64,000 nucleotides of DNA from contig NZ_CAJYEB010000023.1 of NCBI RefSeq assembly GCF_913773735.1, forward strand, positions 186,001-250,000. Reading direction: 5' to 3'. This DNA comes from an uncultured Massilia sp. (GTDB taxonomy: Bacteria > Pseudomonadota > Gammaproteobacteria > Burkholderiales > Burkholderiaceae_D). The notes under the pieces are model-generated. The model saw only the letters and a program-made list of their open reading frames with translations. It did no database searches and was not told where the DNA came from. Below, in pieces: positions 2-27,990 of the stretch (position 1 is the first letter of the stretch; each line of letters opens with the position of its first letter). Position numbers and translations under genes: made by a program.

Positions 2-3000
2 GGCATCCAGACCGTGGCCATCGCCGGCAACCGCGCCCGTTCGGACATCTTCAACCGCAGCAACATGGGTTCGGGCACCGGCATCAACAACACCCAGCTG
101 CAGATCCAGGCATCGATCAACCGCAACCTGCAGGACTACGCCCGCGCCGACCCGCGCGTGTCGCAGACCGACAAGGAACGCGGCGAACTGTCCGTCGCCG
201 GCCAGAACTCGCGCTACAACTCGACCACCGTCGACGGCGTCGCCATCAACGACACCTTCGGCCTGGAAGCGTCGGGCAGCCCGACCTCGCGCCAGCCGAT
301 CTCGATCGAGGCGATCCAGTCGGTCCAGGTCAACGTCGCCAACTACGACGTGACCCAGAAGGGCTACACCGGCGGCAACATCAACGCCGTCACCAAGTCC
401 GGTACCAACAACTGGAAGGGCGGCGTCTACTACGTCTTCCGCAACGACAAGATGGCGGGCGATCGCTACGACATCACCAAGGACACCTACAGCGCGCCGC
501 CGAAGTCGGAAGAGACGACCAAGGGCGTGTGGGCCAGCGGCCCGCTGATCCAGGACAAGCTGTTCATCTACGCCCTGAGCGAAGAGACCAAGAGCACCCG
601 CTCGTCGCCGGACTACGGCCCGGTCGGCTCGAACACCGGCACCACCGTCGGCATCAGCCAGGACCAGATCAAGGCGGTCCAGGACATCATGAAGAACACC
701 TATGGTGTCAACGCCGGCAACCTGGCCACGGGCGGCGGCAAGTTCGTCTCGCGCGAGCAGATGGTCAAGGTCGACTGGAACATCAGCGACAACCACCGCG
801 CCAACATCCGCTACCAGCGCACCCAGCAGGGCGAGCCGCAGTACTCGACCTTCAGCGCCACCGCGCTGAGCCTGGATTCGGCCTACTACAACCAGCAGAA
901 GGAAATCGAGACCACCGTCGCCCAGCTGTTCTCGGACTGGACCCCGACCTTCTCGACCGAGCTGAAGGCCTCGAACCGCGACTACGATTCGGTGCCGAAG
1001 AATAACTCGACGCTGCCGACCATCGGCGTGCAGTTCACCGGCGCGCTGCCGGCCGGCACCCCGTCCGGCGTGGGCACCGGTTCGCGCACGATCAACCTGG
1101 GCACCGACAACTCGCGCCAGATGAACGTGCTGGGCACCCGTACCCAGGACTACTACGCGGGCGCCAACTGGACCGTCGGCGACCACGAGGTCAAGTTCGG
1201 CGGCGACTACCAGAAGAACAAGATCTACAACGCGTTCCTGCAGAACGTGTACGGCAACTACACCTTCGGCTGCGACAACAACCTGACCTACTCGTTCGGC
1301 AGCATCAACTGCTCGACCGCGTCGTCGGCGCAAGTGCAGGCCGCCGTGCTGGAAAACCTGCGTACCGGCCGCTTCACGTCGTACACCTACCAGGTGCCGG
1401 CGCCGGGCTACTCGCTGGAAGACGCGGTCGCCAAGTTCGAGATGGAAAACACCGGCCTGTTCGTGCAGGACACCTGGAACGTCAACCGCCAGCTGACCCT
1501 GACCGGCGGCTTCCGCTGGGACAAGGTCGGCGTCAACGGCACGCCGCTGGCCAACACCCGCGTCGCCGCCCCGGTGATCGCCGGCGTCAACGGCGGCCGC
1601 CAGACCGGCGGCTTCGGCTACAACAACCAGGAAACCATCGACGGCACCAAGCTGTTCCAGCCGCGCTTCGGCTTCAACTACAACTTCGCCACCCCGCGCC
1701 GCATGCAGCTGCGCGGTGGCGCCGGCCTGTTCCAGGGCGCGGCCATGACCGTCTGGCTGGGTAACCCGTTCCAGAACGCCGGCGTCGCTACCCAGCAGGT
1801 CAGCTGCTCGGGCACCGGCACCTCGCGCTGCCCGGTCACCGCTTCGGGCGCCTTCAGCACCGACGTCACCAAGCAGCCGACCCTGGGCGGTTCGGTGCCG
1901 CCGCAGGCCAACGTCGACCTGCTGGACCCGAACCTGCGCCAGCCGTCGATCTGGAAAGCCAACCTGGCCTTCGAGATGGAACTGCCTTGGTACGGCATGG
2001 TCGCCAGCGCCGAGTACCTGTACATGAACACCAAGGACGGCATCTACTTCCAGAGCCTGAACCTGGGTGCGCCGACCCGCCTCGGCCCGGACGGCCGCCA
2101 GATGTTCTGGAACGCCTCGGGCCTGAACGCCAACAGCTGGACCGTGGGTAACAACTCGGTGAGCGTCAAGCAGGGCTTCACCAACACGACCAAGGCGCTG
2201 AGCAACTCGGCCTTCGGCAACGTGCTGAAAGTGACCGGCACCGACAAGGGCGAAAGCCGCATCTCGACCCTGTCGCTGTCGTACCCGATGACCAAGGGCT
2301 TCGGCTGGTCGGTCGCCGCGACCCACACCTACGCGACCGAAGTGTCGAACCTGACCTCGTCGACCGCCGGCTCGAACTTCAACGCCCGCTCGGTGTACAA
2401 CCCGAACGAAGACGTGGCCGCGAACTCGGCCTACCTGGTGAAGAACCGCATCAACGCGCTGGTCAACTTCGAGAAGGCGTTCTTCGGCGCCTACAAGACC
2501 CGCCTGGGCGTGTTCTATGAAGGCCGTTCGGGCAAGCCGTTCAGCTGGACGTTCAAGAACGACATGAACGGCGACGGCACCACCGGCAACGACCTGATGT
2601 ACATCCCGAAAGCCTTCGGTTCGGGCGACGTGATCTTCGCGGGCGACACCGCGACCAACCACGCCAACGAGCAGCGTTTCTGGGACATCGTCAACGGCAA
2701 CAAGGCCCTGCGCAACTCGGCCGGCAGCGTCGTGAACCGCTACAACGACTTCTCTCCGTGGACCAACAGCTTCGACGTGCGCCTGTCGCAGGAAATCCCG
2801 GGCATGTTCAAGCGTAACAAGGCCAGCTTCTCGTTCGACATCCTGAACTTCGGCAACCTGCTGAACAAGAAGTGGGGTCACATCAACGAGATCCCGTTCT
2901 TCTCGGGTGGCGGCCAGACCCGCGGCTTCGTGGACTACGCCGGTATCGACCAGGCCACCGGCAAGTACGTGTACGCCGTGCGCTCGGCCGTGGACAACTA

Positions 3001-3067
3001 CCAGATCCGCCAGGCCAAGGGCGAATCGCAGTGGGCAGTCCAGGCAACCTTCAAGTACGAGTTCTAA
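2..3067 (+). CDS. TonB-dependent receptor, Oar-like (5' end outside window)
   Basis: The reading frame is open from the first bases of the window, so the true start, signal peptide and any N-terminal carboxypeptidase-like domain lie upstream. The visible part (about 1,020 residues) begins inside the plug domain: SVAGQNSRYNSTTVDGVAIN and the following TKSGTNNWKGG stretch are typical of Oar-like TonB receptors. The rest alternates short polar and aromatic strands as expected for a 22-strand outer-membrane barrel, and the protein ends in the aromatic FKYEF, a usual beta-barrel terminus. It should import a large or scarce substrate across the outer membrane with TonB-ExbBD energy. The substrate cannot be read from the sequence. 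The neighbouring secreted nuclease and nucleotidase make nucleic-acid breakdown products a possibility only. A strong terminator follows the stop codon. Confidence 0.9.
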   Translation, partial: GIQTVAIAGNRARSDIFNRSNMGSGTGINNTQLQIQASINRNLQDYARADPRVSQTDKERGELSVAGQNSRYNSTTVDGVAINDTFGLEASGSPTSRQPISIEAIQSVQVNVANYDVTQKGYTGGNINAVTKSGTNNWKGGVYYVFRNDKMAGDRYDITKDTYSAPPKSEETTKGVWASGPLIQDKLFIYALSEETKSTRSSPDYGPVGSNTGTTVGISQDQIKAVQDIMKNTYGVNAGNLATGGGKFVSREQMVKVDWNISDNHRANIRYQRTQQGEPQYSTFSATALSLDSAYYNQQKEIETTVAQLFSDWTPTFSTELKASNRDYDSVPKNNSTLPTIGVQFTGALPAGTPSGVGTGSRTINLGTDNSRQMNVLGTRTQDYYAGANWTVGDHEVKFGGDYQKNKIYNAFLQNVYGNYTFGCDNNLTYSFGSINCSTASSAQVQAAVLENLRTGRFTSYTYQVPAPGYSLEDAVAKFEMENTGLFVQDTWNVNRQLTLTGGFRWDKVGVNGTPLANTRVAAPVIAGVNGGRQTGGFGYNNQETIDGTKLFQPRFGFNYNFATPRRMQLRGGAGLFQGAAMTVWLGNPFQNAGVATQQVSCSGTGTSRCPVTASGAFSTDVTKQPTLGGSVPPQANVDLLDPNLRQPSIWKANLAFEMELPWYGMVASAEYLYMNTKDGIYFQSLNLGAPTRLGPDGRQMFWNASGLNANSWTVGNNSVSVKQGFTNTTKALSNSAFGNVLKVTGTDKGESRISTLSLSYPMTKGFGWSVAATHTYATEVSNLTSSTAGSNFNARSVYNPNEDVAANSAYLVKNRINALVNFEKAFFGAYKTRLGVFYEGRSGKPFSWTFKNDMNGDGTTGNDLMYIPKAFGSGDVIFAGDTATNHANEQRFWDIVNGNKALRNSAGSVVNRYNDFSPWTNSFDVRLSQEIPGMFKRNKASFSFDILNFGNLLNKKWGHINEIPFFSGGGQTRGFVDYAGIDQATGKYVYAVRSAVDNYQIRQAKGESQWAVQATFKYEF

Positions 3068-3227: not shown

Positions 3228-4946
3228 ATGACCGATTCCCGTACCGCCCGCGCGGGCCTGCGCGCCATCGCGCTGGCCGTGGCGCTGGCCCTGGCCGGCT
3301 GCGCGACCTCCACCGCGCCCATCGCGCCCCATGTGCAGCGGCCCGCCGGCCCCGTCGAGATCAACCTGGTCGCCCTGAACGACTTCCACGGCAACCTGGA
3401 ACCGACCCGCTACACCTATACCCCGCCCGGCGCCGACAAGGCCGTGACCATCCAGGCCGGCGGCATCGACGTGCTGGGCGGCGCCCTGGCCGCGTTCCGC
3501 AAGGAGGACAAGGACCTGCTGCTGGTCGCCGCCGGCGACCTGATCGGCGCCAGCCCGGCGATGTCCGGCATGTTCGCCGACGAGCCGACGCTGGCCGCCA
3601 TGGACCGCATCGGCCTGGTCGCCAGCTCGCTCGGCAACCACGAATTCGACCAGGGCAAGACCGAGCTGCTGCGCCAGCAGCATGGCGGCTGCGACTCGCC
3701 GCGCCCGGACAAGGCCTGCCGCTTCCGTCCCGATTTCAAGGGCGCCGGCTATACCTACCTGGCCGCCAACGTGACCGACCAGCAGACCGGCAGGACGCTG
3801 GTGCCGGGCTGGCGCGTGGTCGACGTCAAGGGCGTCAAGATCGGCCTGGTGGGCGCCGTGCTCAAGGGCGTGCCGTCGGTGGTGACCGCTTCCGGCGTGC
3901 GCGGCCTGCGTTTCCAGGACGAGGCCGACGCCATCAACGCGACCCTGCCCGCCATGCGCGCCGCCGGCGCCCAAGTGTTCGTCGTGCTGATCCACGAGGG
4001 CGGCCATACCGGCGAGCCCTACGACAAGGTATTCTGCGACGGCCTCGAAGGCCCGATCGTCGGCATCGTCAAGCGCCTCGACCCGGCCATCCGCCTGGTC
4101 ATTTCGGGCCACTCGCACAAGGGTTACCTGTGCAAGGTCGACGGCCGCGTGGTCACGCAGGGCGACGCCTACGGCCACCTGCTGTCGCGCATCAGGATGA
4201 CCGTCGACCCGGCCAGCGGCAAGGTCGAGGACATCGCCGTGCGCAACGTCGTGATGGCCCCGGATGCCTTCACCCCGGATCCGCAATTGAGCGCATGGCT
4301 GAAGGACGTGCGCGCGCGCAGCCAGGCCGAGCTGGACAAGCCGGTCGCCCGCATCGCCGCGCCGCTGGTCACCCGCAGGCAGAACGACGCCGGCGAATCG
4401 GCGCTGGGCAACGTCGTCGCCGATGCCGCGCTGGACGCCATGCAAGCGCAGGGCGTGCAGGTCGCCTTCATGAACCCGGGCGGCATGCGCAACGACCTGC
4501 AGGCCGGCAGCGACGGCACCGTCACCTTCGGCCAGGCCCAGGCCGTGCTCCCGTTCGGCAATACCCAGGTCGTGATGGACCTGACCGGCGCGCAGCTGCG
4601 CACGGTGCTGGAACAGCAGTGGGAACGTCCGGACGGCGCGATGATGCTGCAGGTCTCGCGCACCCTGGCCTACCAGTGGGATGCGACGAAGCCGAAGGGC
4701 AGCCGCATCGTGCCGGGCAGCCTGAAGGTGGCCGGCGTGCCGGTGGACGACGCCAGGGTCTACCGTATTTCGGCGAACAACTTCCTGGCCGAGGGCGGCG
4801 ACAAGTTCCCGGTCTTCGGCCAGGGCACGAACCGCAACGACACCGGCGTGCGCGACCTCGATACCCTGGTCGCCTACCTGAAGCGGCATCCGGAAACCGG
4901 CGCCGCCAATGCCGCGGCCCAGCCGCGCATCGTCAAGCTGCGCTGA
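3228..4946 (+). CDS. Lipoprotein 5'-nucleotidase / metallophosphatase (UshA family)
   Basis: 572 residues. The N-terminus is a lipoprotein signal with lipobox LAGC (Cys25), so the enzyme is probably anchored in the cell envelope. The metallophosphatase domain carries the dimetal motifs NDFHGN (Asp52, His54), AAGDLIGAS, LGNHEFDQG and SGHSHKG. The C-terminal 5'-nucleotidase domain (from about residue 370) has GNVVADA, FMNPGGMRNDL and the usual late NNFLAEGGDKFPVF substrate-binding loop. The family removes phosphate from nucleoside 5'-phosphates or sugar nucleotides outside the cytoplasm, giving nucleosides that can be imported. It is followed after 32 bases by a secreted S1/P1 nuclease, probably in one transcript, and the nucleoside ABC transporter lies a little further on. 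Exact substrate is inferred from the family. Confidence 0.9.
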   Translation: MTDSRTARAGLRAIALAVALALAGCATSTAPIAPHVQRPAGPVEINLVALNDFHGNLEPTRYTYTPPGADKAVTIQAGGIDVLGGALAAFRKEDKDLLLVAAGDLIGASPAMSGMFADEPTLAAMDRIGLVASSLGNHEFDQGKTELLRQQHGGCDSPRPDKACRFRPDFKGAGYTYLAANVTDQQTGRTLVPGWRVVDVKGVKIGLVGAVLKGVPSVVTASGVRGLRFQDEADAINATLPAMRAAGAQVFVVLIHEGGHTGEPYDKVFCDGLEGPIVGIVKRLDPAIRLVISGHSHKGYLCKVDGRVVTQGDAYGHLLSRIRMTVDPASGKVEDIAVRNVVMAPDAFTPDPQLSAWLKDVRARSQAELDKPVARIAAPLVTRRQNDAGESALGNVVADAALDAMQAQGVQVAFMNPGGMRNDLQAGSDGTVTFGQAQAVLPFGNTQVVMDLTGAQLRTVLEQQWERPDGAMMLQVSRTLAYQWDATKPKGSRIVPGSLKVAGVPVDDARVYRISANNFLAEGGDKFPVFGQGTNRNDTGVRDLDTLVAYLKRHPETGAANAAAQPRIVKLR

Positions 4947-9279: not shown

Positions 9280-10815
9280 TCAGGACTTGTGCAGGCCGCC
9301 CATCAAGAGGCCGATGCGGGTGGTGTCGAATTCGTCGACCGGGAGGACGCCGGTGATGCGCCCGCCCGACATCACGATGATGCGGTCGGCCAGCGCGCGC
9401 ACTTCTTCCAGTTCCACGGACGACAGCAGGATGGCGACGCCTTCGTCGCGCAGGCGCAGCAGCTGGGTGTGGATGCTCTCGATGGTGCCGATGTCGACGC
9501 CGCGGGTCGGCTGGCCGACCAGCATCAGCTTCGGGCAGGCCGCCACTTCGCGCGCGATCACGACCTTCTGCTGGTTGCCGCCCGAGAGCAGGCCGATGCG
9601 CAGGTCCGGATTGTTCGGCCGCACGTCGAAGTCGCGCATCAGGCCGGCGCAGCGCTGCGCGATCTTGCGGAAGTCGAACAGGCCGAAGCGGCCCTTGACC
9701 TCGCCCTGGTCCTGGTAGCCGAACACGGTGTTCTGCATGACCGAGAAATCCTTGATCACGCCGTCGCGCAGGCGGTCTTCCGGCACGTGGCCGATGCCCA
9801 GCAGCCGGAACGCGGCCGGCAGGCCGTCGGCGTTCGCGCGGCCGGCGTAGGGCAGGGGCTGGCCGAGGAACTCGACGCTGCCGGAGGTCGGCAGGCGCAT
9901 GCCCGACAGGATCTCGAGCAGTTCGCTCTGGCCGTTGCCGGACACGCCGGCGATCGCCACCACTTCGCCGGCGCGCAGCGTGAAGTCGATGTCGGACAGC
10001 AGGGCGACGCCGTTGGCGTCCTTCAGTTGCAGGTTCGAGACCTTCAGCACTTCTGCGCCCGGCCGGTAGGGACCGCGCGGCAGTTCGCTCTGGATCGGGC
10101 GGCCGACCATCATGTTGGCCAGCTGTTCCTTGGAGGTGTCGCGCGTCTGCACGGCGCCGACCACGCGGCCGGCGCGCATCACGGTCACCTCGTCGGTGAT
10201 GTCCATGATCTCCTGCAGCTTGTGGGTGATCAGGATGATGGTCTTGCCCTGCTCCTTGAACAGCCGCAGGATCTCGAACAGCGAGGCCGTTTCCTGGGCG
10301 GTCAGCACGGCGGTGGGCTCGTCCAGGATCAGGATCTCGGCGCTGCGGTAGATCTGCTTGAGGATCTCGACGCGCTGCTGGGCGCCGACCGACAGGTCGT
10401 GCACGGTGGCGAGCGGATCGACGTCGAGGCGGTAGCGCGCGCAGATCTCGCGCAGCTTCGCCTCCACCTCGCCGCGCCTCGCGGCCAGCTTGAACCCGCC
10501 CTCGTTGCCGAGCATGACGTTGTCGAGGACGGTCATGTTCTCGACCAGCATGAAGTGCTGGTGGACCATGCCGATGCCGAGGGCGATCGCCTCGTGGCTG
10601 GTGCGGATGTCGCGCGCCTGGCCGTCGACCAGGACTTGCCCGCTGTCGGCATTGTAGTAGCCGTACAGGATGCTCATCAGGGTCGACTTGCCGGCGCCGT
10701 TTTCGCCGATCACGCCATGGATCGAGCCCTTGGCGATCGCGAAGCTGACGTCGGCATTCGCCTGCACCGCCCCGAAGGCTTTGCTAATGTTGCGAAATTC
10801 TACGGCTGGCTGCAT
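9280..10815 (-). CDS. Nucleoside ABC transporter, double ATP-binding protein (NupA/YufO type)
   Basis: 511 residues with two ABC ATPase domains in tandem, as in sugar and nucleoside importers of this class. The N-terminal domain has a full Walker A (GENGAGKST), signature LSVGAQQRVEILK and Walker B ILILDEPTAVL. The C-terminal domain has the degenerate Walker A GVSGNGQSEL but a good signature, LSGGNQQKVVIAREV. This asymmetry is normal for the family and means one site is probably inactive. There is no clear ribosome binding site before the start, and a strong intrinsic terminator lies between the binding-protein gene and this one, so output of the membrane parts is probably lower than that of the binding protein. 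Confidence 0.92.
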   Translation of the reverse strand: MQPAVEFRNISKAFGAVQANADVSFAIAKGSIHGVIGENGAGKSTLMSILYGYYNADSGQVLVDGQARDIRTSHEAIALGIGMVHQHFMLVENMTVLDNVMLGNEGGFKLAARRGEVEAKLREICARYRLDVDPLATVHDLSVGAQQRVEILKQIYRSAEILILDEPTAVLTAQETASLFEILRLFKEQGKTIILITHKLQEIMDITDEVTVMRAGRVVGAVQTRDTSKEQLANMMVGRPIQSELPRGPYRPGAEVLKVSNLQLKDANGVALLSDIDFTLRAGEVVAIAGVSGNGQSELLEILSGMRLPTSGSVEFLGQPLPYAGRANADGLPAAFRLLGIGHVPEDRLRDGVIKDFSVMQNTVFGYQDQGEVKGRFGLFDFRKIAQRCAGLMRDFDVRPNNPDLRIGLLSGGNQQKVVIAREVAACPKLMLVGQPTRGVDIGTIESIHTQLLRLRDEGVAILLSSVELEEVRALADRIIVMSGGRITGVLPVDEFDTTRIGLLMGGLHKS

Positions 10816-10916: not shown

Positions 10917-11915
10917 TTACTGCGGGCAGGACCCGGCGGTGCGGTAGTCCACCACCTTGAGCTTGCCGCTGATGATGTCCGCCCGGGCGGCGGCGATGCG
11001 CTGCTCCATCGCCGCGGGGACGAGGGCGCGGTTGTTCTGGTCCAGCGCCCATTCGACGCCGCCTTCCTTCAGGCCCTTGTAGGTCACGCCCGGCGTGAAC
11101 CGGCCGTTCCTGGCGGCGGTGAAGGCGTCGTAGGCGGCGTTGCCGACGTTCTTGACCATCGAGGTCAGGACCGCGCCGGGCTGCACGCCGTTCTGGTTCG
11201 AGTCGACGCCGATCGCCAGCTTGCCCTTGGCCTTGGCCATCTGGATCGCGCCCAGGCCGGAACCGCCGGCCACGGCGAACACCACGTCGGCGCCGCGGTC
11301 GAACTGCGCGCGCGCCAGCTCGCCGCCCTTGGCCGGGTCGTTCCAGGCCGCGGCGGTGGTGCCGACCATGTTCTGCTGCACCTCGATCTTCGGATTGACC
11401 GCCTTCGCGCCCTGCACGTAGCCGCAGGCGAACGCGCGTATCAGCGGAATGTCCATGCCGCCGACGAAGCCGATCTTGCCGGATTTCGCCGCCATCGCCG
11501 CGGCGATGCCGACCAGGTAGGAGCCTTCCTGTTCCTTGAACAGGATCGAATTGATGTTCTTGCCCACGGCATTGCCGTCGATGATGGCGAAGTGGATCTT
11601 CGGGTACTCGGCCGCGACCTTCTGCACCGCCTGGGTCTGCGAGAAGCCGATCGACACGATCAGTTCCACCTTCTTGCGCGCGAGCGCGCGCAGCACCTGC
11701 TCGGCCTGGGTATCGGTACTGGCCTGGGCTTCGAAGACGTTGAGGCCGTTTTCCTTCTTGAAGCGCTCCACGCCTTCGGAGGCGGACTGGTTGAACGACT
11801 TGTCGAACTTGCCGCCGGCATCGTAGACGACGGCATATTTCGGCACTTCGCGCGCGCTGGCCGCGCCCGCGAGGCACAAGGCAGCGATCGTCATGCCGAC
11901 TTGCTTGAAATTCAT
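10917..11915 (-). CDS. BMP-family nucleoside-binding protein of ABC transporter
   Basis: 332 residues. The chosen ATG at 11915 has a good AGGAG about nine bases upstream and begins a normal signal peptide (MNFKQVGMTIAALCLAGAASA); the frame continues 19 codons upstream without such features. The mature protein starts VPKYAVVYDAGGKFDKSFNQSA, the canonical opening of the BMP/PnrA/Med family. It continues with IVSIGFSQTQAV, FVGGMDIPLIRAFACGYVQGA and ADVVFAVAGGSGLGAIQMA, all PnrA-like ligand-pocket regions. BMP proteins of this type bind purine and pyrimidine nucleosides. There is no lipobox, so it should be a soluble periplasmic protein. It heads the transporter operon and is preceded by an unusually long leader of about 190 bases. 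Confidence 0.92.
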   Translation of the reverse strand: MNFKQVGMTIAALCLAGAASAREVPKYAVVYDAGGKFDKSFNQSASEGVERFKKENGLNVFEAQASTDTQAEQVLRALARKKVELIVSIGFSQTQAVQKVAAEYPKIHFAIIDGNAVGKNINSILFKEQEGSYLVGIAAAMAAKSGKIGFVGGMDIPLIRAFACGYVQGAKAVNPKIEVQQNMVGTTAAAWNDPAKGGELARAQFDRGADVVFAVAGGSGLGAIQMAKAKGKLAIGVDSNQNGVQPGAVLTSMVKNVGNAAYDAFTAARNGRFTPGVTYKGLKEGGVEWALDQNNRALVPAAMEQRIAAARADIISGKLKVVDYRTAGSCPQ

Positions 11916-12110: not shown

Positions 12111-12181
12111 ACTATGCATCAGCCAGTTTACTCGTGGCAAATACGATTTTACTTCGCAATTCATATGGTTGAAATATAAAT
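12111..12181 (-). promoter_or_regulatory. Promoter and upstream palindrome of the nucleoside transporter operon
   Basis: Read on the minus strand: imperfect palindrome ATTTATAT-N7-ATATGAAT (12159-12181), 15 bases, TATTTGCCA containing the -35 TTGCCA (12135-12140), an 18-base spacer, then -10 CATAGT (12111-12116). Every element and every spacing is repeated upstream of the nucleoside phosphorylase operon at 22404-22474. A start near 12104 gives a leader of about 190 bases before the binding-protein gene, in which I recognise no riboswitch. The remaining stretch up to the hydrolase gene (12182-12285) shows nothing recognisable. Confidence 0.75.
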
Positions 12182-19283: not shown

Positions 19284-20186
19284 TCAATCCCCGGCCGGGT
19301 GAAGGATGTTCAGGAACGCCCGCACCACCGGCGCATCGTCCTGCACCGGATACGCGATGTACAGGTTGGCCGACGGCGCATTCGTCCGGATCGGCAGGAA
19401 GCGCACGCCCGGCCAGCCGATGCGGCTGGTGGTCTGCGGCATCAGCGCCACGCCCAGGCCCGCGCCGACCATGGCCAGCAGCGTCTGCGGCTCGGCCGCC
19501 TCCTGGAAGATGGTCGGCTCGAAGCCGGCGGCGACGCAGCACTGGATCAGGTAGCGCGGCTCGGCCGACTGGTCCAGGTGCAGGGTCAGCATCGGTTCGC
19601 CGGCGATGTCGGCCAGTTCGATGGCGTCGTGGCGCGCCAGCGGATGGCGCTCGTTGACGGCCACGCAGAAGCTTTCCTGGAACGCCAGTTCCTGGCGCAG
19701 GTTGGCGTTGCGCAGCGCATCCTCGTCGATGCGCGGCTCGCGCCAGAAGCCGACGTCGATCTGGCGCGCGCGCAGCGCGTCCCACTGGTCGTTCGGGCCC
19801 AGTTCGTGGATGGTCCAGGTCACGCGCGGGAAGCGGCTCTGGAACTGTTCCAGCAGGCCCGGGATCGGCCCCCACATCGCCGAACCGACGATGCCCACGC
19901 GCAGCCGGCCGACCTCGCCGCGGTCGATCTGGCGGATCGTGTCGATGGTCATGCGCATGCGGCCCAGCAGGTCGGCCGCCTCGTGCATCAGCGCCTTGCC
20001 GGCCACGGTCAGCTCGAAGCTGCGCGTGGTGCGCGCGAACAGGCGCACCCCCAGTTCGCTCTCGAGCTTCATGATCTGCTGCGACAGCGGCGGCTGCGAG
20101 ATGTGCAGGCGTTCGGCGGCGCGGCTGAAGCTCTTTTCTTCGGCCACCGCCAGGAAGTAGCGTAACTGCTTCAGGTCGATCGACAT
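19284..20186 (-). CDS. LysR-family transcriptional regulator
   Basis: 300 residues from the ATG at 20186 (MSIDLKQLRYFLAVAEEKSF). The winged helix-turn-helix covers about residues 1-65 (FSRAAERLHISQPPLSQQIMKLESELGVRLFARTTR pattern). The effector domain starts near residue 90 (GRLRVGIVGSAMWGPIP) and ends with a Pro-rich tail. The closest flavour is the BenM/CatM/CynR group by the FSRAAERLHISQPPLSQQI signature. Its start lies 20 bases after the pseudouridine glycosidase stop on the same strand, so it is probably read through from the psuK-psuG transcript. It might also control other genes; the effector is unknown. Confidence 0.9.
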   Translation of the reverse strand: MSIDLKQLRYFLAVAEEKSFSRAAERLHISQPPLSQQIMKLESELGVRLFARTTRSFELTVAGKALMHEAADLLGRMRMTIDTIRQIDRGEVGRLRVGIVGSAMWGPIPGLLEQFQSRFPRVTWTIHELGPNDQWDALRARQIDVGFWREPRIDEDALRNANLRQELAFQESFCVAVNERHPLARHDAIELADIAGEPMLTLHLDQSAEPRYLIQCCVAAGFEPTIFQEAAEPQTLLAMVGAGLGVALMPQTTSRIGWPGVRFLPIRTNAPSANLYIAYPVQDDAPVVRAFLNILHPAGD

Positions 20187-21126: not shown

Positions 21127-22275
21127 TCAGTCCTGTTCTGTGAGGGTCGTGGCGGCGGCGCCGATGGCCGCCAGGGTGTCGGGGCCGATGTCCGGGCGGA
21201 CCGTGGCGTCGGTGCCGAGCGTGAGCGCCGAGAGGTGCAGGCCGCGGCGGCAGGCGCGCAGCAGGTCGCCGTCCTGGTCTTCCTTGCCGTCCGCCTGCGC
21301 CAGCGACCAGCACACGGCCGCGGCGAAGGCGTCGCCGGCGCCGGTGACGTCGACCACCGGGGCCGCGGGCGCGGCCAGGCGCTCGATGGCGTCGCCCCGC
21401 GTGCCGCCCGTGAGCAGCACGCCGCCGGCGCCGCGCGTGACGACGAGGTCGCGCGCGCCCTGCGCCCGCACCTCGCGCATCGCCGCCTCGATGGCCGCGT
21501 CGTCGTCCAGGCGGCGCCCGACCCGTGCCGCCAGTTCGCCGGCGTTCAGGATCAGGAGGCGCACGCCCGCCAGGTCGCGCGGCAGGCGCGCCATCTTGGG
21601 TTCGGACACGGCCACCAGCACCAGCGCCGTGTCGGTGCGGCGCGCGTGCTCGACCACGGCCTCGACGGTGGCCAGCGGCAGGTTGAGGTCGACGACGACC
21701 AGGGCGGCGCTCGCCAGCTGCGCCTGGCGCGCGGCCACGAAGGCCGGGTCGAGCTGGTCGTACAGGGCCATGTCGGCCAGGGCGACGACCATTTCGCCGT
21801 TGCGGTCCAGCACCGCGGTATAGCAGCCGCTCGAGGCGTCCTCGATGCGCAGCGCGCCGCGGGTGTCGATGCCGAGCGTCTCGGCGTGGGCGAGCAGGGC
21901 GGCGCCCGAGCTGTCGCCGCCGATCGCGGTGAGCAGGGACACCGGCGTGCCCAGGCGCGCCAGGTTCTCGGCGATGTTGCGGGCGACGCCGCCGAACGAT
22001 TCGCTCTGGCTGGCCGGATTCGACGTGCCCAGCGCGAGCGGGTCCAGCGAGCGCAGCTTGCGGTCGAGGTTGGCCGCGCCGACGCAGACGACGGGACGGC
22101 GGTCCGGGAACACGTAGGCGCGCCCGAGCAGCTTGCGCTCGCGGATCAGGCCGGCGATGTAGCCGGCCACGGCCGAACGCGACAGCCCGAGCTGGTTGGC
22201 CAGCTCCTGCTGCGCGATGAACGGGTTCGCGCGGATCAGCGCGAGCAGCTGTTGTTTTTTTGAGTGTTCGGTCAC
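21127..22275 (-). CDS. psuK: Pseudouridine kinase with N-terminal helix-turn-helix (PfkB family)
   Basis: 382 residues, starting at a GTG without a clear ribosome binding site. Residues 1-57 form a winged helix-turn-helix ([25 protein letters not shown]), followed by a PfkB ribokinase-type domain. That domain has [14 protein letters not shown], the substrate motif [19 protein letters not shown], and the nucleotide/anion-hole motif [15 protein letters not shown] with its catalytic Asp. It phosphorylates pseudouridine to the PsuG substrate. The fused DNA-binding domain suggests the kinase also regulates transcription, and two direct repeats cover its own promoter (22289-22325), consistent with autorepression. 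Confidence 0.92.
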
Positions 22276-22288
22276 GGCGGCAGACGGG

Positions 22289-22334
22289 TTAAACTTTTGT
22301 TTTTCATCTTAAACACTTGTTTTCAGAGCGTCAA
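22289..22334 (-). promoter_or_regulatory. psuK promoter overlapped by two 17-bp direct repeats
   Basis: On the minus strand: -35 TTGACG (22329-22334), 17-base spacer, -10 TAAGAT (22306-22311). Two copies of a repeat, written on the plus strand as TTAAACTTTTGTTTTTC (22289-22305) and TTAAACACTTGTTTTCA (22309-22325), start 20 bp apart. One covers the spacer and -10, the other the predicted start of transcription near 22299. This is the placement expected for a repressor site, and the helix-turn-helix of PsuK is the obvious candidate. Confidence 0.7.
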
Positions 22335-22403
22335 CGCAGCGGGTCCTGCCCGCGCGACGAGCAGATCGGCCCGGCCACCATGCGATTGGCATGGTAGGCG
22401 ATA

Positions 22404-22474
22404 ATTTATATGTTTCGAATATAAATCGTCCAGAAAAATGGTATTTGCCATACCAATCGACGATCATGCATAGT
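22404..22474 (+). promoter_or_regulatory. Promoter and upstream palindrome of the nucleoside catabolic operon
   Basis: Perfect palindrome ATTTATAT-N7-ATATAAAT (22404-22426), 15 bases, TATTTGCCA with -35 TTGCCA (22445-22450), 18-base spacer, -10 CATAGT (22469-22474), predicted start near 22481. The same series with identical spacings precedes the nucleoside transporter operon (12111-12181). The -35 is itself inside a second perfect palindrome, TGGTAT-TTGCC-ATACCA (22439-22455). The upstream palindrome is centred near -66, a position typical for an activator. Confidence 0.75.
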
Positions 22475-22542: not shown

Positions 22543-23391
22543 ATGACTACTCACCAGTTCAGCAATACCCCCTATGAAGCCGCCGACGTCATCCAGGCGC
22601 GCAAGCCGGGCTTCACGCCGCGCGTGGCCCTGATCCTGGGTTCCGGCCTCGGCGTGCTGGCCGAACAGATGACGGATGCGGTGTCGATCAGCTATGCCGA
22701 CCTGCCGGGCTTCCCGATCAGCACCGTGCACGGCCATGCCGGCGAACTGGTGCTGGGCATGCTCGCCGGCGTGCCCGTCGTCTGCATGAAGGGCCGCGGC
22801 CACTTCTACGAGGGCTATGGCCCGGGCGTGATGACGTCGGCCGTGCGCACCTTCAAGCTGATCGGCTGCGAACTGCTGTTCGTGACCAATGCCGCCGGCT
22901 CGCTGCGTCCGGAAGTCGACGCCGGCAGCGTCGTGCTGCTGAACGACCACATCAACCTGCTGCCGGGCAGCCCGATGGCCGGCCCGAACGACGAGCGCTT
23001 CGGCCCGCGCTTCTTCAGCATGGCCAATGCCTACGACGCCGGCATGCGCGAGCTGGTCAAGGCCACCGCTGCGGACAAGGGCATCACCCTGGCCGAAGGC
23101 GTGTACCTGGCCTGCCCGGGCCCGAACTTCGAGACGGCCGCCGAGATCCGCGCGTTCAGGACGCTGGGCGCCGACGTGGTCGGCATGTCGGTCGTGCCGG
23201 AAGTGATCTCGGCGCGCCACTGCGGCCTGAAGGTCGCCGGCCTGTCCGCCATCACCAACCTGGCCGAGGGCCTGACCCCGTTCCCGCTGTCGCACGAGCA
23301 GACGCTCAAGTACGCGGCGATCGCGGCCAAGGACATGGTGGCGCTGATCCACGGCTTCGTCGAACGCCTCGGCAAGACCACGGCTGCCTGA
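22543..23391 (+). CDS. Purine-nucleoside phosphorylase, XapA-like class II enzyme
   Basis: 282 residues. It cleaves purine nucleosides with phosphate to base and ribose 1-phosphate. The trimeric PNP family is shown by VALILGSGLGVLAEQM, the phosphate-binding KGRGHFYEGY, VTNAAGSLRPEVDAG and GMSVVPEVISARHCGLKV. The following SAITNLAEGL resembles E. coli xanthosine phosphorylase (XapA) more than mammalian PNP. It may therefore accept xanthosine as well as inosine and guanosine; that is an inference. First gene of the operon with phosphopentomutase, deoxyribose-phosphate aldolase, aldehyde dehydrogenase, thymidine phosphorylase and cytidine deaminase. Confidence 0.93.
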   Translation: MTTHQFSNTPYEAADVIQARKPGFTPRVALILGSGLGVLAEQMTDAVSISYADLPGFPISTVHGHAGELVLGMLAGVPVVCMKGRGHFYEGYGPGVMTSAVRTFKLIGCELLFVTNAAGSLRPEVDAGSVVLLNDHINLLPGSPMAGPNDERFGPRFFSMANAYDAGMRELVKATAADKGITLAEGVYLACPGPNFETAAEIRAFRTLGADVVGMSVVPEVISARHCGLKVAGLSAITNLAEGLTPFPLSHEQTLKYAAIAAKDMVALIHGFVERLGKTTAA

Positions 23392-23443: not shown

Positions 23444-24637
23444 ATGTCACGCGCATTCATCCTCCTGCTCGACTCCTTCGGCCTGGGCGCCCTGCCCGAC
23501 GCGGAGAAGTACGGCGACGCAGGCGCCAACACCCTCGGCCACATCGCCAAGTGGGCCGCCGAATCGGGCACGCCGCTGGCGCTGCCGAACCTGGAGCGGA
23601 TCGGCCTGGGCGCCGCCGCGCACAAGGCCAGCGGCGCCTGGCCGGCCGGCTTCGCGCGCCGCGACGGCTTCACCGGCGCCTGGGGCGCCGCCCGCGAGCG
23701 CTCGACCGGCAAGGACACCCAGAGCGGCCACTGGGAAATCGCCGGCGTGCCGGTGCTGTTCGACTGGGGCTACTTCCCCAAGACCGTGCCGACCTTCCCC
23801 GCGGCGCTGACGGACAAGTTGCAGGAGCTGACCGGCGTGCCTGGCTGGCTGGGCAACTGCCATGCGTCCGGCACGACGATCATCACGGAACTCGGCGACG
23901 AGCACGTCGCCACCGGCAAGCCGATCATCTACACCTCGGCCGACTCGGTGATGCAGATCGCCGCGCACGAGGAGCACTTCGGCCTGGAGCGCCTGTACCA
24001 GGTGTGCGAAGCGGCCTACGAACTGGTCAAGCCCTACAACATCGGCCGCGTCATCGCCCGTCCGTTCACGGGATCGAACGGCGACTACAAGCGCACCAGC
24101 AACCGCCACGACTACGCCGTGCCGCCGGTCGCGCCGACGCTGCTCGACCATGTCAGGGACGAAGGCGGCGAAGTGATCGCCCTCGGCAAGATCAGCGACA
24201 TCTTCGCGGGCCAGGGCGTGTCGCGCCTGGTGAAGGGCGCCGACAACATGGCGCTGTTCGACCGCCTGCTCGAGGTCGCCGACGACGCCGGCGACAAGTC
24301 GCTGACGTTCGTGAACTTCGTCGACTTCGACATGCACTTCGGCCACCGCCGCGACGTCGCCGGCTACGCCAACGCGCTGCACGAGCTGGACGTGCGCCTG
24401 CCCGACTTCATCGCGAAGCTGAAGGAAGGGGACCTGGTCGTGATCACCGCCGACCACGGCTGCGACCCCACCTGGGCCGGCTCGGACCATACCCGCGAAC
24501 ACATCCCGGTGCTGTTCTTCGGCCCGGCCGCGCCCGCGCGCGAACTGCCGATCGCCGAGACCTTCTCGGACATCGGCGCCACCCTGGCCAGCCACCTCGG
24601 CGTCAAACCCCTTTCGAACGGAACCGCACTGCTATGA
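23444..24637 (+). CDS. deoB: Phosphopentomutase
   Basis: 397 residues, the normal length. It converts ribose 1-phosphate and deoxyribose 1-phosphate to the 5-phosphates, linking the phosphorylases to central metabolism and to DeoC. The alkaline-phosphatase-like fold is shown by AFILLLDSFGLGALPDAEKYGDAGANTLGH at the start (metal-binding Asp; TLGH). GKDTQSGHWEIAG carries the phosphorylated Thr, and NFVDFDMHFGHRRD, ITADHGCDPTWAGSDHTREHIPVL hold the remaining manganese ligands. The stop overlaps the deoC start by four bases (ATGA). Confidence 0.97.
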   Translation: MSRAFILLLDSFGLGALPDAEKYGDAGANTLGHIAKWAAESGTPLALPNLERIGLGAAAHKASGAWPAGFARRDGFTGAWGAARERSTGKDTQSGHWEIAGVPVLFDWGYFPKTVPTFPAALTDKLQELTGVPGWLGNCHASGTTIITELGDEHVATGKPIIYTSADSVMQIAAHEEHFGLERLYQVCEAAYELVKPYNIGRVIARPFTGSNGDYKRTSNRHDYAVPPVAPTLLDHVRDEGGEVIALGKISDIFAGQGVSRLVKGADNMALFDRLLEVADDAGDKSLTFVNFVDFDMHFGHRRDVAGYANALHELDVRLPDFIAKLKEGDLVVITADHGCDPTWAGSDHTREHIPVLFFGPAAPARELPIAETFSDIGATLASHLGVKPLSNGTALL

Positions 24638-25590
24638 CCCAGCCCCTGGATTTCAAACGTAACACGGCCGTCGGCCTCGACCTGGGCTGGATCAACCACC
24701 TGAAGGTCAACCGCAACGCCGCCGACCGCCGCGCCGCCAGCCTGGCGAACCGCCGCACGGTCAAGAAGGACTACCAGGCCGCCTGGCTGGTCAAGGCGAT
24801 CCAGTGCATCGACCTGACCACGCTGTCCGGCGACGACACCCCGGGCCGCGTCGAGCGCCTGTGCCGCAAGGCCATGCGTCCGCTGCGCGCCGACCTGATG
24901 GACGCGCTGGGCCTCGACGAACTCACCACCGGCGCCGTCTGCGTGTACCACGAGATGATCCAGCCGGCCGTGCAGGTGCTGCAGGGCCGCCTTCCGATCG
25001 CCGCCGTGTCGACCGCGTTCCCGGCCGGCCTGTCGAGCATGGAAACCAAGTTGCGCGAGATCGCACTGTCGGTGGCCGCGGGCGCCACCGAGATCGACAT
25101 CGTGATCACGCGCCAGCACGTCCTGACGGGCAACTGGCAGGCGCTGTACGACGAGATGGTGGCCTACCGCCAGGCCTGCGGCGACGCCCACGTGAAGGCG
25201 ATCCTGGCGACCGGCGACCTGGTCACGCTGGAAAACGTGGCCAAGGCATCAATGGTGTGCATGATGGCGGGCGCCGACTTCATCAAGACCTCGACCGGCA
25301 AGGAAGGCGTCAACGCGACGATCCCCGTGTCGCTGGTGATGGTGCGCGCGATCCGCGAGTACTACGAAAAGACCGGCTTCATGGTCGGCTACAAGCCGGC
25401 CGGCGGCGTTTCCACCGCCAAGTCCGCGCTGCAGTACCTGACCGTGATGAAGGAAGAGCTGGGCAACGAATGGCTGCAGCCGCACCTGTTCCGCATCGGC
25501 GCCTCCAGCCTGCTGACCGACATCGAGCGCCAGCTCGAGCACCACGTCACGGGCTTCTACTCGGCCGCCCACCGCCACGCGCAACCTTGA
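24634..25590 (+). CDS. deoC: Deoxyribose-phosphate aldolase
   Basis: 318 residues from the ATG overlapping the deoB stop; the long frame upstream only runs over deoB. It splits 2-deoxyribose 5-phosphate to acetaldehyde and glyceraldehyde 3-phosphate. The class I aldolase motifs are present: CIDLTTLSGDDT, EIDIVITRQHVLTGNW, DFIKTSTGKEG with the Schiff-base Lys, and VGYKPAGGVST with the second lysine. It is longer than the 250-residue E. coli enzyme because of an N-terminal helical extension, as in the longer class that includes the human enzyme. The acetaldehyde product is a likely substrate of the aldehyde dehydrogenase encoded 15 bases downstream. Confidence 0.96.
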   Translation: MTQPLDFKRNTAVGLDLGWINHLKVNRNAADRRAASLANRRTVKKDYQAAWLVKAIQCIDLTTLSGDDTPGRVERLCRKAMRPLRADLMDALGLDELTTGAVCVYHEMIQPAVQVLQGRLPIAAVSTAFPAGLSSMETKLREIALSVAAGATEIDIVITRQHVLTGNWQALYDEMVAYRQACGDAHVKAILATGDLVTLENVAKASMVCMMAGADFIKTSTGKEGVNATIPVSLVMVRAIREYYEKTGFMVGYKPAGGVSTAKSALQYLTVMKEELGNEWLQPHLFRIGASSLLTDIERQLEHHVTGFYSAAHRHAQP

Positions 25591-25605: not shown

Positions 25606-27990
25606 ATGCCAACAATTAAAGAGATTCTTCAGACTATGGATTACGGTCCCGCACCCGAAAGCACCAAGGAAGCGCAAGCGTGGCTGGACCAGCACGGCCG
25701 CCGTTTCGGCCTGTTCATCGACAACCAGTGGACCGAGCCGGGCGAGACCTTCGCCTCGTCCAACCCCGCCGACGGCAGCGAACTGGCGCAGATCACGCAG
25801 GCGACCGACGCCGATGTGCAGCGCGCCGTCGAAGCCGCGCGCCGCGCGCATCCGGGCTGGGTCGCCATGGGCGGCCACGGCCGCGCCACCGTGCTGTACA
25901 CGCTGGCGCGCCTGCTGCAGCGCCACGCGCGCCTGTTCGCCGTGCTCGAGACGCTGGACAACGGCAAGACCATCCGCGAAACCCGCGACGCCGACCTGCC
26001 GCTGGCCGCGCGTCACTTCTACCACCATGCCGGCTGGGCGCAGCTGCAGTCGGAAGAATTCGCCGACTACCGCGCCGTGGGCGTGATCGGCCAGGTCGTG
26101 CCGTGGAACTTCCCGCTCCTGATGCTGGCCTGGAAGGTCGCGCCGGCGCTCGCGGCCGGCAACACCATCGTGTTCAAGCCGGCCGAATACACGCCCCTGA
26201 CCGCGCTGCTGTTCGCCGAGATCTGCCAGATGGCCGGCGTGCCGGCGGGCGTGGTCAACGTCGTCACCGGCGACGGCCGCGTGGGCGAAGCCATCGTCAA
26301 CCATCCGGACGTCGACAAGCTGGCGTTCACCGGCTCGACCGAAGTCGGCCGCCTGATCCGCAAAGCCACCGCCGGCAGCGGCAAGAAGCTGTCGCTGGAA
26401 CTGGGCGGCAAGTCGCCGTTCATCGTGTTCGACGACGCCGACCTGGACGCCGCGGTCGAGGGCCTCGTGGACTCGATCTGGTTCAACCAGGGCCAGGTGT
26501 GCTGCGCCGGTTCGCGCCTGCTGGTGCAGGAATCCGTGTACGACCGCTTCATCGCCAAGGTGAAGGCGCGCATGCAGACGCTGCGCGTCGGCTCGCCGCT
26601 GGACAAGTCCACCGACATCGGCGCGCTGGTCGATCCGGTCCAGCAGCAGCGCATCCACGGCCTGGTGGAGTCGGCGCGCAGCGAAGGCTGCGAAGTCTGG
26701 CAGCCGGCCTGCGCCACGCCGGGCGAGGGCGCCTGGTACCTGCCCACCCTGATCACCGGCGCGTCGACCACCGCCACCGTGAGCCAGACCGAGATCTTCG
26801 GCCCGGTGCTGGTGGCGATGAGCTTCCGCACCCCGGCCGAGGCGGTGCAACTGGCCAACAACACCGTCTACGGCCTGGCGGCCTGCGTCTGGACCGAGTC
26901 GATCAGCCTGGCGCTGGACGTGGTCCCGCAGATCAGGGCCGGCGTGGTGTGGATCAACACGGCGAACCAGTTCGACGCGGCCTGCGGCTTCGGCGGCGTG
27001 AAGGAATCGGGCTTCGGCCGCGAAGGCGGCAAGGAAGGCATGTTCGAGTACCTGATCCCGCGCTCGGAAGACGCGCGCCCGAACCTGCCGCAGGCCGTCG
27101 CCCGCGCCAAGGCCAAGGCGCAGCCGGCGCGCGAAGCCAACCCGTTCCAGATCGACCGCACCGCCAAGCTGTACGTCGGCGGCAAGCAGGCGCGCCCGGA
27201 CAGCGGCTACAGCCGCGCGATCCACGGCGCCGGCGGCGAGTTCCTGGCCGACGTCGGCGAAGGCAGCCGCAAGGACATCCGCAACGCCGTGGAAGCGGCG
27301 CACAAGGCGTCCGGCTGGGCGAAAGCCAGCGCGCACAACCGCGCCCAGGTGCTGTACTACATCGCCGAGAACCTGGCCGTGCGCGCCGACGAATTCGCCG
27401 AGCGCATCGCCCTGCAGACCGGCAGCAAGAACGCCGAGAAGGAAGTGCAGGCATCGATCGAGCGCCTGTTCTACTGGGCCGCGTGGGCCGACAAGTACGA
27501 CGGCGCCGCGCACCAGCCGCCGATGCACGGCATCACCGTCGCCCTGAACGAACCGGTCGGCGTGATCGGCATCGTCTGCCCGAACGAGAACCCGCTGCTG
27601 GGCTTCGTCTCGCTGGTGGCGCCGGCCATCGCGCTGGGCAACCGCGTGGTCGCCGTGCCGTCGGAAGCGCATCCGCTGTCCGCGCTGGACCTGTACCAGG
27701 TGCTGGACACCTCGGACCTGCCGGGCGGCGTGCTGAACATCGTCACCGGCGCCGCCGACGAGCTGGCGCGCACGCTGGCCTCGCACTTCGACGTCGACGC
27801 CGTGTGGCGCCACGACGGCTCGCCCGACGGCTGCGCGGAAGTCGAGCGCCTGTCGGCCGAGTCGCTCAAGCGCACCTGGACCGGCGGCGCCAAGGGCCGC
27901 GACTGGTTCGACGCGAAGCAGGCGGCGGGGCGCACGGTGCTGCAGCACGCGACCCAGGTCAAGAACGTCTGGATCCCGTACGGCGTCTGA
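25606..27990 (+). CDS. Two-domain aldehyde dehydrogenase, ALDH16 type
   Basis: 794 residues, about 1.6 times a normal ALDH. The N-terminal domain (about 30-490) is complete: GQVVPWNFPLLM, general base Glu265 in LELGGKSPF, catalytic Cys299 in NQGQVCCAGSR, and EIFGPVLVAMSF. The C-terminal part (about 515-790) is a second ALDH domain (KLYVGGKQARPDSGYSR, GVIGIVCPNENPLLG) that is cut short and lacks the catalytic cysteine. An active domain followed by a degenerate one is the ALDH16 architecture. The position after deoC suggests it oxidises the acetaldehyde released by DeoC to acetate; this is inferred from context. Translation starts 15 bases after deoC. Confidence 0.92.
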   Translation: MPTIKEILQTMDYGPAPESTKEAQAWLDQHGRRFGLFIDNQWTEPGETFASSNPADGSELAQITQATDADVQRAVEAARRAHPGWVAMGGHGRATVLYTLARLLQRHARLFAVLETLDNGKTIRETRDADLPLAARHFYHHAGWAQLQSEEFADYRAVGVIGQVVPWNFPLLMLAWKVAPALAAGNTIVFKPAEYTPLTALLFAEICQMAGVPAGVVNVVTGDGRVGEAIVNHPDVDKLAFTGSTEVGRLIRKATAGSGKKLSLELGGKSPFIVFDDADLDAAVEGLVDSIWFNQGQVCCAGSRLLVQESVYDRFIAKVKARMQTLRVGSPLDKSTDIGALVDPVQQQRIHGLVESARSEGCEVWQPACATPGEGAWYLPTLITGASTTATVSQTEIFGPVLVAMSFRTPAEAVQLANNTVYGLAACVWTESISLALDVVPQIRAGVVWINTANQFDAACGFGGVKESGFGREGGKEGMFEYLIPRSEDARPNLPQAVARAKAKAQPAREANPFQIDRTAKLYVGGKQARPDSGYSRAIHGAGGEFLADVGEGSRKDIRNAVEAAHKASGWAKASAHNRAQVLYYIAENLAVRADEFAERIALQTGSKNAEKEVQASIERLFYWAAWADKYDGAAHQPPMHGITVALNEPVGVIGIVCPNENPLLGFVSLVAPAIALGNRVVAVPSEAHPLSALDLYQVLDTSDLPGGVLNIVTGAADELARTLASHFDVDAVWRHDGSPDGCAEVERLSAESLKRTWTGGAKGRDWFDAKQAAGRTVLQHATQVKNVWIPYGV

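What the first reader, a model, noticed from the sequence alone, without database searches (positions are those of the whole stretch)
22404..22474. Nucleoside catabolic promoter shares a composite regulatory module with the nucleoside transporter promoter
Seen in sequence: ATTTATAT-N7-ATATAAAT, 15 bases, TATTTGCCA (with -35 TTGCCA), 18 bases, CATAGT. The transporter operon 10 kb away, on the opposite strand, has the same pieces at exactly the same distances (12111-12181). Random occurrence in GC-rich DNA is very unlikely. Inference: one regulator, probably binding the palindrome at about -66, controls both import and breakdown of nucleosides. None of the regulators in the window is an obvious match, so the factor may be undescribed.
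Basis: seen in the sequence. Interest (0 to 1): 0.75.

Follow-up and report, generated by a model that had tools for sequence, protein, structure and literature searches.

The report
XapR-type regulator's nucleoside promoter module
Two distant gene groups for importing and breaking down nucleosides share the same two-part switch, most likely operated by a regulator gene lying between them that is a relative of E. coli XapR; the design is of a known kind, but this wider, coordinated set of genes under it is new to us.

Summary
The module precedes the phosphorylase gene in all 80 loci kept of 352 relatives, and 61 of 62 genomes of the genus match it. One regulator for import and breakdown is well supported, but it is neither missing from the window nor of unknown kind: a LysR-type gene at 19284-20186 (-) passes the NCBIfam cut-off of the family of E. 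coli XapR. In 392 genomes of the bacterial family, all 170 with this gene have the module; of 222 without it 10 match, the only strong one a probable contaminant. Three genomes keep the phosphorylase without the LysR gene and all lack the palindrome. The rival HTH-kinase gene is missing from two loci that keep LysR gene and module. The layout, a T-N11-A site near -66 plus a block over -35, is that of a LysR-activated promoter. A third, weaker copy about 660 bp left of the window precedes a TonB receptor and 5'-nucleotidase. A related module lies between xapA and yfeN in E. coli. Binding, starts and inducer are untested.

The parts
22404..22426 (+). Site 1: palindrome ATTTAT-N11-ATAAAT (T-N11-A), proposed upstream LysR recognition site, centre about -66 of the inferred start
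22427..22457 (+). Site 1: conserved AAAAATGG-TATTTGCCATAC block holding -35 TTGCCA (22445-22450); proposed second (activation) site overlapping -35
   Evidence: E. coli analogy
22469..22474 (+). Site 1: -10-like CATAGT (18 bp from -35)
   Evidence: GCAT invariant in 61 of 61 aligned sites
12159..12181 (-). Site 2: palindrome of the transporter promoter
12128..12158 (-). Site 2: conserved block with -35 TTGCCA (12140-12135)
12111..12116 (-). Site 2: -10-like CATAGT
19284..20186 (-). LysR-type regulator (P0005), XapR family by NCBIfam cut-off; proposed regulator of the module
22543..23391 (+). XapA-type purine nucleoside phosphorylase
   Evidence: TIGR01699 403 bits, cut-off 371
23444..24637 (+). 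phosphopentomutase (deoB)-like, Metalloenzyme PF01676; the name deoB is inferred
24670..25590 (+). deoC, deoxyribose-phosphate aldolase (start approximate)
   Evidence: TIGR00126; corrected frame
25606..27990 (+). aldehyde dehydrogenase, 794 aa
28014..29468 (+). thymidine phosphorylase (deoA)
   Evidence: TIGR02643 720 bits, cut-off 571
10917..11915 (-). BMP/PnrA-type substrate-binding protein of the ABC importer
   Evidence: PF02608
7209..10815 (-). ABC ATPase (9280-10815) and two permeases (8176-9264, 7209-8174)
14..3067 (+). TonB-dependent receptor, its start outside the window, behind the third module copy at G000:C23:185336 (L115:17336)
3228..4946 (+). 5'-nucleotidase downstream of the receptor
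   Evidence: PF02872 and PF00149

Best explanation
The module is the operator-promoter of a XapR-type LysR activator encoded at 19284-20186 (-). The T-N11-A palindrome near -66 is its upstream recognition site. The conserved block over a weak -35 (TTGCCA, 18 bp, CATAGT) is the second, activation site. When a (deoxy)nucleoside inducer is present, the activator bound at both sites recruits RNA polymerase. It thereby switches on together the outer-membrane receptor and 5'-nucleotidase, the BMP-type ABC importer and the nucleoside-splitting operon. Shown: the module, its conservation, and its co-occurrence and co-loss with the LysR gene. Inferred: binding, activation, start sites and inducer.
For: Module upstream of the phosphorylase in 80 of 80 loci (0-4 mismatches in 30 fixed positions; the 80 are the best of 352 relatives found); LysR gene in 80 of 80, HTH-PfkB and psuG in 79 of 80. 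In L075, where neither HTH-kinase nor psuG was found, the LysR gene stands directly divergent from the phosphorylase with the module between. In the most divergent genus (G079; LysR 67% identical) the LysR gene starts about 30 bp from the palindrome and the module faces ABC genes followed by the phosphorylase; neither HTH-kinase nor psuG was found on those 9 kb. Family sample of 392 genomes: LysR in 170 at E<=1e-80, module in 180 at E<=0.01, all 170 included (worst best E 4.5e-14). Of the ten LysR-less matches nine are weak (E>=2.6e-5); the tenth, G234, is strong, on a 7.7-kb contig whose site equals that of M. horti, with no phosphorylase found in that genome. Phosphorylase-positive, LysR-negative genomes G367, G373 and G376 lack the palindrome, 3 of 3; G367 keeps only the -35/-10 core. 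Order sample: 8 of 300 genomes match R1, namely the 4 with the LysR gene plus 4 weak ones (E>=0.0019). LTTR sign: T-N11-A in 57 of 61 aligned sites. Known XapR: two sites in the E. coli xapAB promoter, one upstream and one overlapping -35, the response much reduced without the upstream one (PMC7205307, passages). The profile, built without E. coli, has its best match in 8 kb of the E. coli xap locus in the xapA-yfeN intergenic region (E=5e-4; 0 of 3000 shuffles reach it), and in the Salmonella counterpart (E=3e-4).
Against: No binding or expression data. LysR gene, phosphorylase operon and module co-vary, so the 170-genome association (6 of 44 genera, not independent) is partly shared ancestry, and the profile was trained on sites from LysR-bearing genomes. 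The separating cases are few: two loci without the HTH-kinase, and three co-losses, two of them in genomes 82% and 88% complete. Nine weak matches in 222 LysR-less genomes are more than the about two expected at E<=0.01, though the profile's E-values are rough. The own genome has three further LysR-type relatives of P0005 at 34-37% identity, not tested as binders. The XapR-P0005 clade has only moderate support (87/71). The E. coli match faces yfeN, not xapA, and covers only the first 53 of 74 positions; in Salmonella the profile needs a 10-base insertion. Both known E. coli XapR sites are called low-evidence in PMC7567609 (one passage). The third copy in this genome is clearly weaker than the other two.
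Confidence: 0.85

Rival explanations
1. The HTH-PfkB kinase fusion encoded divergently (21127-22275, -) binds the palindrome and regulates both operons.
For: Divergent neighbour of the phosphorylase with an N-terminal winged helix (PF13412); present in 79 of 80 loci.
Against: Not found on L075 (20.8 kb) or on the 9-kb G079 locus L213, both of which keep module and LysR gene; the rest of those genomes was not searched for it. It has its own candidate operator beside its start: AAAC-N4-GTTT with up to one mismatch, at least one copy in 74 of 79 loci and at least two in 41 of 79, mostly 20-21 bp apart, none in L075.
Confidence: 0.06
2. An unlinked, undescribed regulator binds the palindrome; the LysR gene is only a linked passenger.
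For: No binding data exclude it.
Against: Complete co-occurrence with the LysR gene (170 of 170) and absence of the palindrome in 3 of 3 phosphorylase-positive, LysR-negative genomes; T-N11-A two-part layout typical of LysR regulators; related module at E. coli xapA-yfeN.
Confidence: 0.07
3. The two promoters are a recent duplication or an AT-rich constitutive (UP-element) promoter without a dedicated regulator.
For: -35 and -10 are conserved together with the palindrome; G367 keeps the core promoter without the palindrome.
Against: Flanks and spacers differ, the half-sites persist across genera while the inner bases vary, and the palindrome is missing where the LysR gene is missing.
Confidence: 0.02

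Closest known systems
XapR and the xapAB operon of E. coli
   Same: LysR family member passing the same NCBIfam equivalog cut-off, 40% identical; controls a XapA-type phosphorylase; promoter with one upstream site and one overlapping -35 (PMC7205307, passages); xapR is often transferred together with xapA (PMC2395238, passages); related sequence module in the xapA-yfeN region.
   Different: Here the regulator gene lies in a row with an HTH-kinase and psuG; import is by a BMP-type ABC system, not the XapB symporter; three operons within about 23 kb share the module; a TonB receptor and 5'-nucleotidase are included.
PunR-punC of E. coli (PMC8376909, abstract and passages)
   Same: LysR activator of purine nucleoside transport with a 23-bp palindrome.
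   Different: Consensus as printed there, TsttwTCAAwAwwwTTGaaGGCA, is unlike ATTTAT-N11-ATAAAT; described as a specific activator of the transporter gene punC; in the tree it did not group with P0005 (long branch, so unsure).
BenM/CatM-type LysR promoters
   Same: Solved structures among the nearest by sequence; upstream-plus-activation-site layout (recalled).
   Different: Regulate aromatic catabolism (recalled); palindrome sequence differs (recalled).
CytR/DeoR control of nucleoside genes in enterobacteria
   Same: Control the same kinds of genes (deoC, deoA, deoB, tsx) (recalled).
   Different: LacI- and DeoR-type repressors (recalled); not tested here as binders of this module.

Membership tests
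XapR family (NCBIfam NF007439 / PRK09986) | Score above the curated cut-off of 290 bits | tested here: met
   P0005 312.2 bits; E. coli XapR 531.4
XapR family (NCBIfam NF007439 / PRK09986) | LysR architecture: HTH_1 plus LysR substrate-binding domain | tested here: met
XapR family (NCBIfam NF007439 / PRK09986) | Forms one clade with E. coli XapR against paralogues | tested here: inconclusive
   Clade found, support 87/71; 86/54 in a first tree that held a wrong-frame row
XapR family (NCBIfam NF007439 / PRK09986) | Linked to a XapA-type phosphorylase | tested here: met
   LysR gene in 80 of 80 phosphorylase loci; TIGR01699 403.2 bits against 370.9
XapR family (NCBIfam NF007439 / PRK09986) | Activates in response to xanthosine | not testable with these tools
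   needs growth or reporter assays
LysR-type activated promoter | T-N11-A dyad upstream of the promoter | tested here: met
   57 of 61 aligned sites; centre about -66 from the inferred start
LysR-type activated promoter | Second conserved element overlapping -35 at fixed spacing | tested here: met
   TTTG of TATTTGCCA invariant in 61 of 61, fixed spacing from the palindrome in the alignment; that the protein binds it is not shown
LysR-type activated promoter | Protein binding to both elements | not testable with these tools
   needs EMSA or footprinting
HTH-PfkB (21127-22275) as regulator of this module | Always present beside the module | tested here: not met
   not found on L075 or on locus L213; rest of those genomes not searched

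The most novel reading that the evidence does not exclude
The palindrome - 15 bp - GTATT(T)G block is an old, portable XapR-type operator kept from enterobacteria to Oxalobacteraceae. In E. coli it faces yfeN, a Tsx-type nucleoside channel gene, making yfeN an unrecognised XapR target. In Oxalobacteraceae it has spread to an outer-membrane-to-cytosol nucleic-acid scavenging regulon that in some genomes also takes in a PhoB-like response regulator and secreted proteins.
Probability: 0.45. Interest if true: 0.5.

Novelty: new member of a known kind. Interest (0 to 1): 0.4.

Why it matters
It turns an unexplained promoter pair into a testable three-operon regulon with a named regulator gene, gives a consensus by which nucleoside regulons can be annotated in Massilia, Duganella and Janthinobacterium, and predicts a new target (yfeN) for a little-studied E. 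coli activator.

Tried and rejected
HTH-PfkB as the regulator: rejected by L075 and L213 and by its own candidate operator. Inverted repeat ACCATGC-GATTG-GCATGGT at 22377-22395: of the seven sequences whose repeats were printed only the window has it, so not pursued. Orthologues of P0005 outside the family at E<=1e-85: 4 of 300 genomes of the order match, all own genus. E. coli XapR in 369 genomes of the class at E<=1e-70: 0, with no positive control in the sample, so uninformative. XapR relatives on plasmids: 5 records; three opened; two of these have sparse gene tables and were not used. P0005 on plasmids at E<=1e-75: none. Paper searches: XapR+xanthosine (10 papers), nucleoside/LysR/BMP/regulon terms (3 papers), yfeN+Tsx+nucleoside (none), XapR terms (10 of 18 listed), Massilia+nucleoside+LysR (none), Oxalobacteraceae terms (8 of 173 listed, none of the 8 holding that name). 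Papers opened, passages only: PMC7205307, PMC7567609, PMC2395238, PMC8376909. The original E. coli XapR binding-site papers were not read, so the E. coli match was not compared with the published site coordinates.

Errors of mine: the deoC query was in the wrong frame; the 80-locus count was repeated in the right frame (78 of 80). include ORFs without Pfam match, several probably antisense. In one search one tree row (own_par2) looks like a wrong-frame reading; the tree was rebuilt without it and without two long-branch rows, PunR and YfeR. The A1 alignment used 61 of the 70 thinned sites printed: left out were the third-copy and fourth-site types (L085, L115, L117-L121) and two sites with a shifted -35 to -10 spacer (L068, L069).

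Full report
Observation. Both promoters were read directly and carry the same pieces at the same distances: palindrome (23 bp), 15 bp, TATTTGCCA, 18 bp, CATAGT. The palindrome of the transporter promoter departs from symmetry at one base. The window shows two matches with up to 3 mismatches against 0 in 100 shuffles; genome-wide only these two match with 0-1 mismatch. The window belongs to a Massilia-like genome: the best relatives of its phosphorylase are mostly named Massilia records.

Conservation. The module lies upstream of the phosphorylase in 80 of 80 loci, the best 80 of 352 relatives, from Massilia, Telluria, Duganella, Rugamonas, Pseudoduganella and Janthinobacterium records. 61 of 62 genomes of the genus match the 47-bp pattern with up to 3 mismatches; the pattern read backwards matches in none. 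The one miss, G048, has a strong profile match (6.8e-17). In 61 thinned sites the half-sites, the TTTG of the -35 block and the GCAT of the -10 are the most fixed parts, while the inner N11 varies.

The regulator. The gene at 19284-20186 (-) is a LysR-type regulator. It is in 80 of 80 loci. It passes the NCBIfam NF007439 cut-off (312 against 290), as does E. coli XapR (531), and is 40% identical to XapR. A tree groups them with moderate support (87/71); one paralogue in another genome (G397, 45% identical) joins just outside. The own genome holds three further relatives at 34-37% identity. The phosphorylase is of XapA type (403 against 371).

Co-occurrence. In 392 genomes of the family, 170 have the LysR gene at E<=1e-80 and 180 have the module at E<=0.01. 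All 170 are among the 180, the weakest at 4.5e-14. Nine of the ten others are weak (E 2.6e-5 to 0.0097); chance would give about two among 222 genomes, so nine is somewhat more, five of them in one genus (g7), and the profile's E-values are rough. One of the nine is the promoter core of G367 (below). The tenth, G234, has a perfect site at the end of a 7.7-kb contig, identical to that of Massilia horti, and no phosphorylase at E<=1e-60, which points to contamination. In 300 genomes of the order, the LysR gene is in 4 and the module in 8: those 4 and 4 weak ones. These genomes are not independent: the LysR gene is in 6 of 44 genera of the family sample, and the profile was trained on sites from LysR-bearing genomes.

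Separating cases. (a) In L075, a Janthinobacterium MAG, HTH-kinase and psuG were not found; the LysR gene is directly divergent from the phosphorylase and the module is intact. (b) In G079 (genus g19) the LysR gene starts about 30 bp from the palindrome and the module faces ABC genes followed by the phosphorylase; a second module lies upstream of another BMP-type operon. (c) Phosphorylase without the LysR gene: G367 (98% complete), G373 (82%) and G376 (88%), found among 21 handles and 40 genomes of their genus; other LysR-less genomes of the family were not all searched for the phosphorylase. Their best LysR relatives at E<=1e-40 are 37% and 34% identical, or none. None of the three has the palindrome upstream of the phosphorylase, and G373 and G376 have no profile match at E<=0.01. 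G367 keeps TTTGCCA and GATGATGCATAGTG, matching only positions 33-72 of the profile, which shows that the -35/-10 core can persist without the palindrome. G376 keeps psuG divergent from the phosphorylase, so psuG does not carry the motif with it.

The rival HTH-kinase. It has its own candidate operator between its start and the module: two AAAC-N4-GTTT palindromes 20 bp apart at 22291-22322, the only such pair in the window. With up to one mismatch at least one copy is found in 74 of 79 loci and at least two in 41 of 79, against 2 of 1580 shuffled regions with two; none in L075.

Regulon. The profile finds a third copy at C23:185338, about 660 bp before the window (E=6.7e-6), its first base 327 bp upstream of the start codon of a TonB-dependent receptor, which is followed by a 5'-nucleotidase. 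Of nine LysR-bearing genomes looked at, eight (own, G017, G025, G100, G108, G152, G222, G397) have a copy before a TonB receptor followed by a homologue of this 5'-nucleotidase, in G397 a different receptor; G079 does not. Weaker copies (E 8e-7 to 0.007) stand before an OmpR-type response regulator in four of four loci scanned (L197, L200, L208, L210); L197's is PhoB-like but under the PhoB cut-off. Others stand before large proteins with Big_7 or MAM-like domains, which look secreted (L199, L202, L205), or divergently from a second TonB receptor (L117, L119, L120; L196, L214). These were not tested further.

E. coli. Known from PMC7205307 (passages): XapR has two sites at xapAB, one upstream and one overlapping -35, and removing the upstream one strongly reduces the xanthosine response. 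PMC7567609 (one passage) calls both sites low-evidence. [quoted passage not shown] The profile, trained without E. coli, finds its best match in the 8-kb xap locus in the xapA-yfeN intergenic region (13.5 bits, E=5e-4), with the same 15-bp spacing to TATTGG; no shuffle of that region reaches it (0 of 3000). The match covers positions 1-53 only and faces yfeN, a Tsx-type channel gene (PF03502). On the xapA strand a second GAAAAGTGTATTGGT block lies farther from the palindrome. The xapA-side block is identical in a Salmonella xapA region and the yfeN-side one nearly so; there the profile match needs a 10-base insertion. The intergenic region is present in 4045 of 5426 E. coli genomes. This supports a shared XapR-type recognition sequence but is not proof of binding.

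Conclusion. The finding is real, and its core inference, one regulator for import and breakdown, is well supported. The regulator is very probably the XapR-type LysR gene in the same window. It is a new member of a known kind, with a wider regulon than the E. coli one as far as I could find in the searches named.

Noticed in passing
window 22291-22322: Two AAAC-N4-GTTT palindromes 20 bp apart beside the HTH-PfkB start, conserved with that gene (at least one copy in 74 of 79 loci) and absent in the one locus without it; a likely autoregulatory operator of the HTH-kinase.
   Followed up: partly
L115:17336 (G000:C23:185336), just left of the window: Third, weaker copy of the module upstream of a TonB-dependent receptor and a 5'-nucleotidase.
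   Followed up: yes
L116:5990-6042 (E. coli xapA-yfeN intergenic region): Related module facing yfeN, a Tsx-type channel gene; predicts XapR control of yfeN.
   Followed up: partly
L117:5457-5503, L118:4225, L119:4479, L120:4801: Fourth-type copies lie divergent from a second TonB receptor, but their -35/-10 read the other way, away from the receptor. By eye three of the four read toward the 3' end of a GGDEF-like gene (the one ORF scanned there, L117:4335-5411, had no Pfam match); a small RNA or leader is possible.
   Followed up: no
L197:835, L200:8173, L208:8506, L210:1508: Module variants (TATTAG or TATTAT in place of TATTTG) in front of an OmpR-type response regulator in several genera.
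   Followed up: partly
window 25606-27990: Aldehyde dehydrogenase of 794 aa with two Aldedh-matching stretches, a double-length member in the nucleoside operon.
   Followed up: no
window 22377-22395: Perfect 7-bp inverted repeat ACCATGC-GATTG-GCATGGT just upstream of the module, not seen in the six relatives whose repeats were printed.
   Followed up: partly
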